Of a DNA stretch of 64,000 nt, positions 34,820 through 42,348 are shown piece after piece (the stretch's first letter is position 1; each line of letters starts with the position of its first letter). The translations under genes were made by a program, and so were the position numbers. This DNA comes from Sordariomycetes sp. S80-01Y (taxonomy: Eukaryota; Ascomycota; Sordariomycetes). The stretch lies in assembly GCA_037042185.1 (NCBI GenBank), contig JAXQJY010000031.1, forward strand, positions 620,001 through 684,000, written 5' to 3'. The notes below the pieces were generated by a model. It had not been told where the DNA came from. It searched no databases and saw only the letters and a list, made by a program, of their open reading frames with translations.

Positions 34820-35857
34820 TCATACTCTACCTTCTGACCCCTTATCGTTAGCGGCTTCTTTACCCAAGGGATTTTTCTTCGCAAGCTTCTGCTTCAACGC
34901 AAATTTCACCTCCCTGATGACAAGAAACGATATCATCATCAGGGGATAAAGGGTAGCGAGGGCAAGGACAACCAATGTTCCCGTTGAGGTAACCTGCGCT
35001 GCCCTCTCGAGAGCCCGCCAACTGGACTTGGGCTCCCATGTCTCCGGAATCGCCAGAGCGACCTGAAAGCCAGCCATGAGTAGCGACAATATGGCAAATA
35101 CGAAAAGCAGAGGTCCGTAGACACGGGCGATCCGGTCGGCGTACTGCCCCTGCACGCGATGGTAGCACGACCGTCCCAGGAAAATCTTCGCCCAGAAGTT
35201 GAGTCTTGAGAGTCGCAGCTCTCCGTAGTGGAATCGCGGAGACACTTCGTTGTCGGGTATGCTCTCGAACTCGGAGAGGAACTTGATCAGGGAGCTGTAT
35301 TTGACCTTCTTCGGCACCAGACGTTGCCCATCTCGTTTGGCAAGGTCGAAATCTGATCGATGACAGATCAGGAAAGCATAGCTCCGTATGAATCCGGTTG
35401 CGGCTTGCCTGATCAGTTGTCTCTGGCTCGCTTCTATGGGCGACGAGTCCGAGCACAGGTAGCATTCCCAGAACGCGTGGGATAGGAGGAATTTCGGAAG
35501 CGGTTTTACAAAGACGCGGTCATAGTACCAGACAAGGTGTAGTTCTGGGTTCTCGGTGATGATAATCTGCCGGGCCTTCACAATTTGGCGGGAGAGGCTG
35601 CTGATGTGGGAGCTGTCGGGCGTGGCGAGCAGCCATAGCCTCGGCGCGAGGATGTTGAGATCAGCGGTGAGCAGCTCTCTCTTCAGAAATTCGCCGATAT
35701 AAGGGCTGGCGACATCAATGCGCGGGTGTTCAGGGATATAGTTCTTCGGCGAGTGCGATCCTGCCGACACCGTTCTCGTCAAGGCGTGGGTCGCGTGCGA
35801 TTGCTCCAGACCGTGGTAAAGCTCATCCTCCTTAAGGAACGGGCACTGCGGTGCCAT
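34820..35857 (-). CDS. DUF6601-like membrane protein
   Basis: Intronless, 345 residues. It matches by eye a conserved fungal family of unknown function (DUF6601 type), recognised from PRIDVASPYIGEFL and ELLTADLNILAPRLWLL near the N terminus, LHLVWYYDRVFVKPLP, and FHYGELRLSRLNFWAK before the membrane part. Two hydrophobic helices at about 243-268 and 292-315 anchor the C-terminal part, leaving a large soluble N-terminal domain and a short Lys-rich tail. Database entries of this family sometimes carry a misleading protease name; I see no catalytic triad. It is head to head with the NLR-like gene over 737 bases, which may mean shared regulation, an inference only. Confidence 0.7.
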   Translation of the reverse strand: MAPQCPFLKEDELYHGLEQSHATHALTRTVSAGSHSPKNYIPEHPRIDVASPYIGEFLKRELLTADLNILAPRLWLLATPDSSHISSLSRQIVKARQIIITENPELHLVWYYDRVFVKPLPKFLLSHAFWECYLCSDSSPIEASQRQLIRQAATGFIRSYAFLICHRSDFDLAKRDGQRLVPKKVKYSSLIKFLSEFESIPDNEVSPRFHYGELRLSRLNFWAKIFLGRSCYHRVQGQYADRIARVYGPLLFVFAILSLLMAGFQVALAIPETWEPKSSWRALERAAQVTSTGTLVVLALATLYPLMMISFLVIREVKFALKQKLAKKNPLGKEAANDKGSEGRV

Positions 35858-36594
35858 GATGATCTATGGCTAGCAAAATTTCGAGCCCGAGCAAAGTCAT
35901 TTCAGCCTTTGCCTTCCAAGTTGGATGCGCAGACTCGTCGCGTTAGTCTAGTCAGCTTCGCAGCTGGTGATTGGGCTGCATCTCGACGTGCAGAAGTACA
36001 GAAGGGCAAGCCAATCAATCAACCCTGTTCTCAGAGCCTGGCCAAGCTGCGACCCAGCGTACTAATGCAATTCCTGGCGCTTTGGACTCAAGTTACAAGT
36101 ACCTCTTAACACCCATCTGGTACATTTTGCTTGCAAGCTCTTCGTGAAGCTCTTTCGTGGCCTGTTGGCCTGGCTTGTAGCCTCAAATCGGGAGACGTCT
36201 TATTAGAAGACAATGGCAGAAGGCCAGCGAACACACGCATTCACATCGCTAGTTCAATTGTTCCAAGTAACACTAGTCGCCGCCGAGATTGACGGTATGC
36301 TATGCGTGGCCAGCGCAAGGCCTACGCCCCCTGTGCCACCGAAACCTACGCGCTGTCTGTTAGCGTGAGACTGCCTTGACGCCCTTCTTAACTCTCTGCG
36401 GAACACTGAAGACAAAAGACAAGGCTGACACCAAATACCGCCCCAAAGCGGGGTTTTTCAGTGAGCCGCATAGACAACAAATTCTTGGCTCGATTGTGCA
36501 TCCTGCGTCCTTCGTATCCTTAGATTGTATATATCATGTTTTCACCCCGTAACTAGTGCATGTCGTTAGATCGCGCACCGACGGAGTCAGAAAA
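35858..36594. promoter_or_regulatory. divergent promoter region, membrane protein / NLR
   Basis: 737 bases between two start codons pointing away from each other. A TATATAT at 36528-36534 sits 61 bases before the NLR start codon. Nothing else recognised. Confidence 0.45.
36528..36534 (+). promoter_or_regulatory. TATA box of the NLR-like gene
   Basis: TATATAT, 61 bases upstream of the ATG at 36595. Confidence 0.45.
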
Positions 36595-39500
36595 ATGTTT
36601 CTTGCACTTCTGTGGGGTCTCGTTATACTCTACGTCGTGGCTTCGATCTTCCGTGTCGTCGACTACCACCAGATCACTTCCGTCCTGGCTCTTCTGTTCC
36701 TCGGGCTCTTTGAAATTACACGGCGCCAGGAACTTCTGGTTAATCGGCTCTTGTGGGGTTTTCCTACAGTTCTTTTGGCTGTTGCTTGCCTTTACCTCTC
36801 TCCCGCTCAGGTTAAGCTCCTCGGCGGGCAGTCCGGTCAAGACCGATACCCAGACACCTACGAGCCAAAGAATGGGAAATCCGCAGTTGAGTAAGAGAAC
36901 TCGAACCCGCCCTGAATGGCAAACAGCAAGGTCACCCGATTCACTGACCTGCATCCGTAGCATTGTTGCCGTTCATGGGATTGGCTCGCACCCGGAAAAG
37001 GCTTGGGTTCATAAAGAGACCAGCTTCAATTGGCTCAAGGCGTTACCCGAAGAGGAAGGGATCAATGCACGCGTGATGATGTACTATCACAACACACAAT
37101 GGGAGTCCAAGTCTCTCGCTTTGTCTCTCGACGACGTAGCCCAACGCCTGCTGAAATCTGTCATATCTTGGAGGAGAAAGTCCGATCCCGTAAGTTCTAA
37201 TGAGATGCGCAGCGAGTTTCGGTTTCTGACCTTACGTCTGAGACACGGCCCATCATTTTTATAGGGTACAGTTTTGGGGGGTTGATTGTCAAGAAGGTAA
37301 GTTGCACTTGTTTGTGAAAGTATCAACACAATACTGACCACGTGCCCAGGCAATGATCCTGCACACTCGGAGGGAGACACTCGATGATAGCCTCATCGGC
37401 TTCTGCTTCCTAGGAACCCCTCACCATGGCTCAGGGCTAACTATGTTCGGCGAGATCCTGTCGGTTTTGGGCTACTGGACCGGGTCCAGCACGCGTCTGC
37501 TCCGGATAATGAGGAGAGGGTCACCTGAGAACGCCGACCTACATATGACATTCATGGATATGTTTTCGCACGTGCGAGGCAATATTCTCAACGTCCGGGA
37601 AATGGTACCGGAATACCTAGGGCCTTTTCCACTTACACAGGTGACAACTCTTCCTCCTCGAATGTCGTCAATCGCTGTTCCCTAACTCCTTCGCAGGTAG
37701 TTTCTGAAGTAGACGCCAATATCGACGTCCAGGACAGAGCGGCTCTCGCATCTGATCACAGGGGTCTGCAGAGGTTCCGATCAAAAGACGACGCGCTGTA
37801 TAAGATGATGCTGGATGACCTCAAGTTCCTGATCGAAAGGGTGCAGAGGTCATCTGGACGCATCGAGCAAGGTTCGTTCTCACGCATCCTGCCAATTTAC
37901 TAGGCATATACATTATCGATTTGACAGCCTGTCTTACCTATAAGCGCAGAGGTCACGGAGGAGTCTAGGCGTCAGACCCAGATCCTGAAGGGTATTCCAG
38001 ACGTTCCAGGTGCTGAATTCAAGCATGTCGACCAGCAAGCCCAATCTTGCACGCCCGGGACACGAGTAGGTCTGCTTCAAGACATCGAGAATTGGGCCTG
38101 CGATCCCAAGGAGCCGCGCGGGTTTTGGCTGCAGGGACTGGCAGGCACCGGGAAATCCACTGTTGCTCGAACAGTTGCCGGCGACTTTTCATGCGGAAAG
38201 TACAGAGATCGATTCGTCGTGGCAAGCTTCTTCTTCAAAAGGGGCGCCGGAGATCGCGCCACAGCCAGAAAGTTCACGACAACTCTTGCCAAACAGCTAG
38301 GGCGCCACGAGGACCTGAAGCGAACCCTCACCAATGCGTACGAGCAGAACCCCGGGGTAGATGAGCACGCGCTAGAATACCAATGGCGCCACTTGATTAG
38401 GGAACCTTTACTCAAGGCGATGGAGGCTACCGGTCATAGAACCGTCCTGCTCGTCGTAGATGCGGTTGACGAGTGCCAAAGGACGGGGATGGCCGGGAAC
38501 GAGGTCCTCGAGTTCCTCCTGGATGAGCAATACTTCGAGGGCCTGAATATTCGACTGTTTGTCACGTCGCGTCCCATGGTCAAGGAAGAGAGGACCGGGA
38601 TACACTCATTATTCAAGCTGCATAAGATCGATCCAATTATTGTGGAGGCTGACATACGCAGGTTCCTCGAGTTCAAATTCCGCAACGACTTCCACCCTCA
38701 GACTGGATTCCCCAGGAAGGAACACATCGATGCACTCGCTAGACGAGCAAGCCCATTGTTCATTGCAGCTGTGACGAGCTACAAATTCATCGAGGAGGAT
38801 GAGGCCGACCCTGAATATCAGTTCAATCTTCTGATGAAGACTACCAGAGGGTATGATACGGATGCAGACGTAGCTTCGAAAACTATTTCACAAGTGGAGG
38901 AGGAGCTGGACGATATGTATCTTGTTGTTGTGAAGCAAGCGCTCGGCAAGGGGAAACAAAGGGGCCGGGACACCATACTCCGTCGCAATCTTGAGCGATA
39001 TCAGATCATCATGGGCTCTTTGCTGGCGCTAAGGGATTCGCTCAACTACGTGGAGCTAGCTTTGCTTCTGTTCGAGGATCCGGACCGTGTTCGCACATTT
39101 CTCGGCTTCTTCCAGGCAGTTTTGCAAACGGGCGAGCTACCGAAGACCCCGCCGCCAACGGACGAGCCGCCTGAGCCGATTCAAATATTCCACCAGTCCC
39201 TGCCTGACTTTCTTTTGAATGAGGATCGAGTCAGAGCAGCTTGCGAATCTCAGACTGCCGAGCAACGCGTCGAGTTCAAAGATGTGTGGATAGACGTGAA
39301 AGTGCGCAATACGGCTCTGTTCTACAACTGTGTGGGCGTAATGGAGAGACTCATGGTGCCGTCAGATCCACTATGTACGCTGAATCATGATGGGATCATG
39401 GACATTTGCAAGCTTCGAGGGCCTGGTCAGAAGGCTGCTGCTATTTCCGAAAACACGCTCAACGAGGCCATTCCTCCACGCCTCCGATATGCCTGCAGAT

Positions 39501-42348
39501 ATTGGGTTACCCATCTTGTCGAAGGCACGCCGGAGGCAGACCAAAATCGCCTGTGGGACTTTCTGAGACAACATCTCCTCCACTGGATCGAAATTATGAG
39601 TTGTCTGGGCAGCTTGAGTGACACCATCGCACAACTGGACCAAGTAGAAAAATATTTAAATGTGAGTTTCAAAGTCCCCAACCTGACTCCAGGAGAGGCT
39701 TACGATTGACGTTTTTCAAGCGTGCGGGCAGCATCCACGGGGAATTGCTTGGTCTTGTTGCCGATGCGGGACGTTTCGTCCGATTCGGAAGAAACGGTAT
39801 TCAGGAAGCGCCGCTCCAAGTATACTATTCGGCCCTCATTTTTGCTCCCAGAAACTCCAAGGTGAAGCAGATGTTCGACAGAGAGATTCCTTGGATAGAA
39901 CTGCGGCCTAGTGTAGCAGAGGACTGGGATGCCAAGCTCATGGAACTCACAAACCATGAAAGTGATATAAGAAGCGTCATGTTTTCGGCAGATGGGGTGC
40001 GGATTGCCTCTGTTGACGTCGAAAATAACTTGCTTGTCTGGGTGGGCACCACTGGTGCTGTAATCTCGAGAGCAACGATTGGCAACCGGGAGTGTTTGGA
40101 TGTCTCTTGTAAAGACTTTCTAGCTTTTGGCAATGTCAAGGGGGAAGTTGTCATATGGGAAAACATGGAGAAGCGAAACCAGAGAACTTTGTGTGGACAT
40201 GAAGGTGGTATCGATCAGGTCCGCTTCTCTCCTGATGGGCAGTGGCTGGCCTCTTTTGACAACAAGGGAACGCTGATGCTGTGGGAAATAAGCAGCGACT
40301 TCCGCCGAGTGACTCTGCATGCTGAGATAGATGGACGTTGTAAGGGGATGGCCTTCAGCTCCGTTCAGGAGTCCGAGGGGCGAGCTGGAGAGATACTCTT
40401 TGCCGTGGCGATTCAACGGTTCGAGCCTGGTGACGAGCTGACGACCGTGACGGTGTGGAGCAAGCGTCAGGGAGTTGAATGGGAGATGTTCTGCGACTTC
40501 ACTTGCGAAGGGGCGCTGTCGAGTGATTTGATCTTCGCGCACAGAAAGCTCTTTTGCGCATTGTGGGTATACCCGACGAAAGACATCGCCATTACCGAGT
40601 GTGAGCTTGGTTCTAAAAAGCACGACATCCGGACCAAGGATCTTCAAGGGTACTTCGAGTACGTTAGCCGGGTTGAGTTCCTCGCGCGACCACAAGCCAA
40701 CCGAGACCAGATCGCTTGTATTGCTTGTGACTCAAACGGTAGCATGTGGCGTTACGACTTGGCTGGCAGCGGAGACAGGCATCTAAAAGCACAGGAATTT
40801 GAGGACTCTAAGAATGCACTGTTTTCACGAGTTTCCCCCGACTCTAGTCTCATAGCTGGCTCACTTTTGGACTGTTCCTGGTGCATGTGGAAAACCGACA
40901 CGGGGGAGCGCGTTACAAAGGAAAACGGTGTCGCCTACGGCATCCCCCGCATACCTCCAGTTTTGGCACCGTCGGGGTCAATCTTGGCAGTAGTGACCGG
41001 GATAAACTTGATCCAGCTATGGGACTGCGATCTGGCGCGTCGCCAGCGCCTGCAACCTCAAAGGCTGTCAACGAGCGTCAGCAGCTCCGTTCAGGCGGAG
41101 ACTGTCTCTGCTAATGGACAACGAGCGGCCGTTCTATTTCAGGTCGGTGATAAAAGCTTCAGCATCGAACTCTACGACCTTTCAACAGCCTACACTGCTA
41201 CTAGGGCGCTCAAACGTCTAGAGCCCCCCGTTGGGGTGGTTCGGGGGTTTCCGACCCTGCTCTTCTCACCGGACTCGAGCTGGATAGCATTGCGGAGCCA
41301 AGAGCAAGTCAGCTTGTGGAATTTGAATTCATGCGACGGCAAAGCCAGCCCCACCAGGACCATCGAAGCTACAAACAATGATTATTTTCACAAGCATTCT
41401 ATCGCCTTTTCGCTAGACGCGAAGTCAATCGCCTATTTGGATGGGGACGGAAAGGTGCTGGTGGCCAGACTCGATTCCCGGAGCACCGAGGCACGCCAAG
41501 TCCACGAGCTTGATTCCGACTCCCATTTCCTATCCTTGACGGCCTCCAGAAGCCGTTTCTACGTGGCTCAATATGGACTTCAGGCTGCCCAAGTCATCGA
41601 GTGTGGCCTTGATACCCCTTCTGTCCTAGTCTATCAGAGCGATCATGATCCAATGCACTCCATACTTGCTAACGATCGCTTGCATGATGGATTCTACTCA
41701 CCTGCTCGAAGCATGTTTGCTGTCCAGCAGCATGGACGCGGAATCCACATCTACAATTCTTCACCATCAGTCTACTACAAAAGCTTCCACCACCCGGGAT
41801 ATATCCAAACTTGTCATTGGTGCGATCGAGGCTGCTGTCTCTTCAATGAACGCTACGGTAGTCTTCAAATAGACCCAGAGTCCCCACCTCATGGGATATC
41901 TGACCCCTGCAAGCGGCTCCCAGTTTCCTCGGCTGAGTCGTCCAATTGGATATTATGGAAGGGGAAACCTTTTCTTTGGCTGCCTTCACATCACAACACT
42001 TCCGAGGTTAGCTTTTACAGCAACACGCTCGGAATGCGGCTCTCAAATGAGCCGACGTGGTTGAGATTCGGTTCCTCAATCCCAACTCTCCAAGCGCTGG
42101 TCGAGGAGCAGCCTCCCGAGTCCACTTATCTATTCCAAGAGATGACGGAGATGGGATACAACGAGTCTTTGGAAGATGCACGAGACGAGGCACGACTCAT
42201 GGAAGAGGACAGACGAGGCGGGCGACGAGAAGAGGAGCGACGAGAAGAAGAACGACGACTAGAGGAACGACGAGCAACAGAACAGAAACGACAAGAAGAA
42301 ATACTTGAACAAACACTATCTGCAAGGGTAGATCTATCGGACGAGTGA
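36595..42348 (+). CDS. NLR-like protein: membrane helices, hydrolase, NACHT, WD
   Basis: Seven exons: 36595-36890, 36961-37189, 37243-37296, 37350-37640, 37697-37871, 37950-39661, 39721-42348; 1794 residues, closing in frame. Residues 1-70 hold three hydrophobic helices (about 2-19, 27-41, 52-69). Residues 99-330 form a SesB-like alpha/beta hydrolase: DIVAVHGIGSHPEKAW, the nucleophile elbow GYSFGG (Ser185) and GTPHHGSG. A NACHT NTPase follows, with Walker A GLAGTGKST (411-419) and Walker B VLLVVDAVDE (about 514-523). From about 985 there are degenerate WD-type repeats (VMFSADGVRIASVD, VRFSPDGQWLASF), and the tail is an Arg/Glu-rich helix. Fungal NLRs with such domains sense non-self or act in heterokaryon incompatibility; NACHT oligomerisation is expected to activate the effector. 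Exon 1 is the least secure: its join (VD to IVAVHG) is clean, but the membrane helices are unusual for the family. Confidence 0.85.
42190..42300 (+). repeat. Arg/Glu-coding low-complexity tract in NLR tail
   Basis: Purine-rich imperfect repeat built on cgacga/gaagag units, coding the REE-rich helix at the C terminus of the NLR-like protein. Such tracts change length easily. Confidence 0.7.

What the first reader, a model, noticed from the sequence alone, without database searches (positions are those of the whole stretch)
36595..42348. Membrane-anchored hydrolase-NACHT-WD receptor
The splice model brings three hydrophobic helices from exon 1 in frame with a SesB-like alpha/beta hydrolase bearing a GxSxG serine, a NACHT NTPase and WD-type repeats. 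Known fungal SesB-type NLRs usually begin directly with the hydrolase. A membrane-tethered version would place an inducible lipase/esterase at a membrane, suggesting activation by oligomerisation and local lipid attack. This is the best candidate in the window for an undescribed immune or incompatibility architecture.
Basis: partly seen in the sequence, partly recalled or inferred. Interest (0 to 1): 0.72.

Follow-up and report, generated by a model that had tools for sequence, protein, structure and literature searches.

The report
Fungal immune-type receptor with membrane anchor
This fungal gene most likely encodes a known type of self-defence receptor (lipase-like enzyme, ATP-driven switch and WD repeats) whose first exon adds an unusual hydrophobic stretch in front of the enzyme, which could hold it at a membrane.

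Summary
A seven-exon model (36595-42348, 1794 aa, phases consistent) joins a 98-aa hydrophobic exon to a SesB-like hydrolase (DUF676), a NACHT NTPase and WD repeats. Whether exon 1 belongs was tested inside the same genome: of 14 other SesB-type genes readable at that point, 10 have an acceptor at exactly the same codon position (mean 0.43 genes at 180 control offsets), 9 of the 10 with a GA|GT donor, so intron 1 sits at a shared phase-2 place. Exon 1 scores as coding in the helix frame, not in the frame that would run unspliced into the hydrolase. The claim that such receptors begin with the hydrolase is not borne out here: 10 of 14 show an upstream exon, and five share another ~100-aa module. 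The hydrophobic exon itself is the unusual part: no other match in this genome, none in Pfam, none significant in PDB. SesB-NACHT-WD receptors are known, and human SERAC1, with the same lipase type, has a putative transmembrane domain. Helix number, topology, location and activity are unproven. A new variant of a known kind, perhaps made by exon exchange.

The parts
36595..36890 (+). Exon 1: 98 aa with two clear and one borderline hydrophobic segment; ends GA|GTAAGA (phase 2)
   Evidence: no other match in the genome at E<=10, none in Pfam or NCBIfam; PDB two hits, best E 0.95
36891..36960 (+). Intron 1, 70 nt, GTAAGA...CACTGAC...GTAG; position and phase shared with paralogs
36961..37189 (+). 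Exon 2: start of SesB-like hydrolase (DIVAVHGIG)
37243..37296 (+). Exon 3: 18 aa with nucleophile elbow GYSFGG
   Evidence: same motif in paralogs
37350..37640 (+). Exon 4: hydrolase, continued
37697..37871 (+). Exon 5: hydrolase C-terminal part, candidate catalytic His in SDHRGLQRF
   Evidence: similar stretches in paralogs
37950..39661 (+). Exon 6: NACHT/NPHP3_N NTPase (GLAGTGKST; VLLVVDAVDEC) and the region after it
39721..42348 (+). Exon 7: WD-type repeats, charged C-terminal tail and stop

Best explanation
The locus encodes a fungal NLR of the SesB-NACHT-WD kind whose first exon supplies a hydrophobic N-terminal anchor. Shown by sequence: the gene model is consistent, the exon-1 splice is at a position shared with paralogs, and exon 1 looks coding. 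Inferred: WD repeats recognise a ligand, NACHT oligomerises, and the hydrolase, which begins 28 residues after the last hydrophobic segment, acts on lipids or esters of the membrane it sits in, in a nonself or cell-death response. The anchor perhaps came by exchange of the 5' exon at the shared phase-2 intron, where other members carry other modules.
For: Model with consistent phases; Pfam domains; acceptor at the same position in 10 of 14 paralogs against a mean of 0.43 and a maximum of 4 at 180 other offsets, GA|GT donor in 9 of the 10; the other 4 of 14 have an uninterrupted Asp codon (GAC/GAT) exactly there; codon score of the helix frame 0.131 (98-codon windows of training ORFs mean 0.136, sd 0.087) against -0.115 for the frame that runs unspliced into the hydrolase (off-frame mean -0.117, sd 0.080); five paralogs share a homologous exon-1 module to which ours shows no blastp match.
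Against: No transcript data. Exon 1 has no homologue in any collection I could search, and no fungal collection beyond this genome was on hand, so conservation of the helices is untested. The middle segment is borderline. The loop before the last segment is the positive one (+3/-1), which by the positive-inside rule (recalled) would put the hydrolase on the non-cytosolic side if three helices span. The alternative frame also encodes a hydrophobic stretch (up to 1.92), and a reverse-strand frame over exon 1 is open and scores 0.146. Predicted transmembrane regions from faulty 5' extensions of fungal gene models are on record (two LRR cases in PMC2939053, passages). The catalytic acid is not identified.
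Confidence: 0.62

Rival explanations
1. Exon 1 is a separate small gene or an intron-retained product (99 aa, stop right after the donor) and the receptor starts elsewhere, for example by reading intron 1 through from an ATG in the other frame.
For: An open frame runs unspliced into the hydrolase (36557-37264); retention of intron 1 gives a stop at 36892-36894.
Against: That alternative frame scores as non-coding (-0.115), and intron 1 is at the place of the paralogs' intron.
Confidence: 0.1
2. The joined protein is real but exon 1 is not a stable anchor: a signal-anchor, a cleaved signal, or a hydrophobic segment that inserts only on activation, in the manner of HeLo helices.
For: First segment starts at Met1 and is very hydrophobic (2.54); the second is borderline; charge pattern ambiguous.
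Against: Two clear hydrophobic segments within 70 residues fit an integral anchor better than one cleaved signal (inference).
Confidence: 0.22
3. A receptor gene that is no longer functional, kept open by chance.
For: None found; the repertoire is large (29 NACHT matches at E<=0.001), and large families often hold dead members (general knowledge).
Against: A model of 1794 codons without a stop, with Walker motifs and GxSxG present; introns were chosen to keep it open, but the two largest exons are open over 1712 and 2628 bases.
Confidence: 0.05

Closest known systems
SesB-like/NACHT/WD40 fungal NLRs (e.g. NWD4 of Podospora anserina)
   Same: SesB-type hydrolase, NACHT and WD repeats in this order (NWD4: PMC3321046, passages; SESB-LIKE/NACHT/WD40 rows: PMC4986451, passages)
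   Different: Hydrophobic exon before the hydrolase; not mentioned in the passages I saw
Human SERAC1
   Same: SesB-type serine lipase domain in a protein with an N-terminal putative transmembrane domain (PMC6687635, passages; link to sesB in PMC4986451, passages)
   Different: Single transmembrane domain (32-54), lipase at 396-540 of 654 aa; that it has no NACHT or WD is recalled
Other SesB-type receptors of the same genome (15 genes, L030-L044)
   Same: Hydrolase; intron at the same place in 10 of the 14 readable
   Different: Other first exons; among the 10 of 15 whose main long ORF I scanned, ankyrin repeats in 6, TPR in 2, WD in 1 (L037), no repeat family at E<=1e-5 in L031

Membership tests
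Fungal SesB-NACHT-WD NLR | SesB/DUF676-type hydrolase with GxSxG | tested here: met
   DUF676 23.5 bits (cut-off 20.3; 27.4 for the hydrolase alone); GYSFGG in the translation
Fungal SesB-NACHT-WD NLR | NACHT NTPase with Walker A and B | tested here: met
   PF05729 over cut-off; GLAGTGKST and VLLVVDAVDEC seen in the translation
Fungal SesB-NACHT-WD NLR | C-terminal WD repeats | tested here: met
   PF00400 47.7 bits with two stretches passing on their own; the rest of exon 7 is divergent
Fungal SesB-NACHT-WD NLR | Ligand-induced oligomerisation and cell-death or incompatibility role | not testable with these tools
   needs experiment
Membrane-anchored protein | Transmembrane helices | tested here: inconclusive
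   two clear and one borderline hydrophobic segment by Kyte-Doolittle only, topology ambiguous; structure prediction switched off
Active serine hydrolase | Ser-Asp/Glu-His triad | tested here: inconclusive
   Ser and candidate His placed by motif; acid not identified

The most novel reading that the evidence does not exclude
A constitutively membrane-embedded NLR lipase in which receptor oligomerisation clusters SERAC1-like enzymes on one membrane, created by swapping the 5' exon at an old phase-2 intron that acts as an exchange point for N-terminal modules in fungal SesB receptors.
Probability: 0.35. Interest if true: 0.6.

Novelty: new variant of a known kind. Interest (0 to 1): 0.4.

Why it matters
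Fungal NLRs are described as intracellular receptors (PMC9815663, abstract), and how SesB-type lipase domains act on cells is unresolved as far as I know. A member with its own membrane anchor would point to the membrane under attack and give a directly testable protein. The shared intron also suggests a simple route, exchange of the first exon, by which such receptors could change their N-termini.

Tried and rejected
Unspliced start of the receptor: rejected on codon score. Relatives of exon 1: own genome, only itself at E<=10, with a single candidate passing the first look, so diverged hydrophobic exons could be missed; Pfam and NCBIfam none; PDB two hits, best E 0.95, taken as chance; bacterial and archaeal genome contigs, 84 pattern matches and no relative at E<=1e-3. 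Fungal collections that would decide this were not on hand, and viral contigs were not scanned. Hydrolase against PDB: three hits, best E 0.22, not used. That the shared exon-1 module of five paralogs looks RRM-like is only my impression; Pfam gave nothing for the four of five scanned.

Literature: six searches that ran, listing 4 of 4, 15 of 19, 15 of 73, 15 of 35, 10 of 1442 and 10 of 41 papers; I recognised none in the listings as describing a transmembrane SesB-type fungal NLR. 'Transmembrane' occurs 0 times in the main texts of PMC9815663, PMC12258605 and PMC3321046 and 0 times in PMC4986451 (listing); in PMC10197012 and PMC12881547 it concerns HET-S, HeLo, MLKL and gasdermin membrane action; in PMC2939053 the places shown (12 of 14) use it for LRR proteins, kinases and method. 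I saw passages, not whole papers, and no supplements, so absence from print is not shown.

Full report
Observation. The window lies in a 30.9-Mb, 16-contig genome (G000, contig C14:620001-684000), fungal by gene content and intron style (my inference; species not given). A seven-exon model from 36595 to 42348 gives 1794 aa with all junction phases consistent and introns of 53 to 78 nt. Exon boundaries were set by eye. Pfam places DUF676 at aa 100-221, NPHP3_N/NACHT at 393-561 and WD40-type repeats from about 990. Exon 1 has 19-residue windows scoring 2.54 (aa 1-19), 1.58 (21-39) and 1.73 (52-70). Of 5000 random 98-aa stretches of 30 long ORFs, 438 had one or more segments at 1.5, 17 two or more, 0 three. 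That sample is mostly from receptor loci and may include antisense frames, so it is a rough control.

Does exon 1 belong? The hydrolase query found 20 matches in the genome at E<=1: four from this gene and sixteen from fifteen other genes, all fifteen fetched. The weakest are at E 0.04 (L043) and 0.17 (L044); both have a related start motif (IIAVPG, IVAVPG) and the acceptor. At the codon that begins the IVAVHG-type motif, 10 of 14 genes (L036 left out) have AG plus one base, so that the intron would end at the same phase-2 place as here; 180 control offsets gave a mean of 0.43 genes and a maximum of 4. Nine of the ten have a GA|GT donor, counted from GA 52-73 bases upstream; in L034 the candidate donor reads AA|GTGAGA. 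Two of the nine donors are weak by consensus (GTCAGG, GTACGG). The remaining four have an unbroken Asp codon exactly there. In our gene the join GA|C also makes Asp. This supports intron 1 independently of its own splice signals.

Codon use agrees. With 30 long ORFs as training (21466 codons), the helix frame of exon 1 scores 0.131 per codon (98-codon training windows 0.136, sd 0.087; off-frame -0.117, sd 0.080), and the frame that runs unspliced into the hydrolase scores -0.115. Against this, a reverse-strand frame over exon 1 is open and scores 0.146, though its synonymous-codon score is 0.003 against 0.088, and the alternative forward frame also holds a hydrophobic stretch (1.92). Gene models with a false 5' extension carrying a transmembrane prediction are on record in fungi (PMC2939053, passages), so transcripts are still needed.

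What is and is not unusual. Upstream first exons are common in this family: five paralogs (L035, L038, L040, L041, L043) carry one homologous ~100-aa module at this place (28-43% identity in the 9 of 10 pairs that blastp listed, one over only 25 residues and one at E 0.011; L035-L041 not listed), with no Pfam match in the four scanned. The 98-aa hydrophobic exon matches none of the five and nothing else in the genome. A look 600 bases upstream of 14 paralogs and 900 bases upstream of L042 showed hydrophobic stretches above 1.6 only in L038, some 550 bases upstream and before any in-frame ATG that I saw. So the anchor is a single case in this genome as far as these scans reach. The nearest NACHT relatives (43% and 33% identity) carry a short amyloid-looking N-terminus (L046) and a PNP_UDP-looking one (L047), both labels by eye, which fits the exchange of N-termini described for fungal NLRs (PMC4986451, passages).

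How it may work. Known: SesB-like domains are predicted lipases and frequent N-terminal domains of ascomycete NLRs (PMC4986451, PMC9815663 and PMC12258605, passages); SERAC1 carries one and has a putative transmembrane domain (PMC4986451; PMC6687635, passages). Inferred: WD repeats sense, NACHT oligomerises, the enzyme acts on the membrane that exon 1 inserts into. Open: helix number and topology. The loop before the last hydrophobic segment has +3/-1 charge, which by the positive-inside rule (recalled) argues against a simple three-helix arrangement with a cytosolic enzyme; two helices, or a hairpin, remain possible. The active-site acid was not found.

Verdict. Very likely a real gene with this exon order; a new variant of a known kind, with the membrane role unproven.

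Noticed in passing
L035, L038, L040, L041, L043 upstream of the hydrolase: A homologous ~100-aa first-exon module precedes the SesB hydrolase in five receptors and has no Pfam match in the four scanned.
   Followed up: partly
L046:1-1500 (C14:307439-308938): The nearest NACHT relative has a short N-terminus that looks to me like an amyloid signalling motif (NNSFTIGNNATYYVNYG), not tested.
   Followed up: no
L047 (C9:1929261-1933841, read on the reverse complement): The second nearest NACHT-WD relative has an N-terminus that looks like PNP_UDP, judged by eye.
   Followed up: no
34820-35863 (-): Divergent neighbour ORF matches DUF6601 (252.6 bits).
   Followed up: partly
37297-37349 and paralogs: Intron 3, right after the GxSxG exon, also seems shared in position with several paralogs, whose frames run into V after K-K/E/Q.
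   Followed up: no
42190-42348: Highly charged Arg/Glu-rich tail after the WD repeats, perhaps coiled coil.
   Followed up: no
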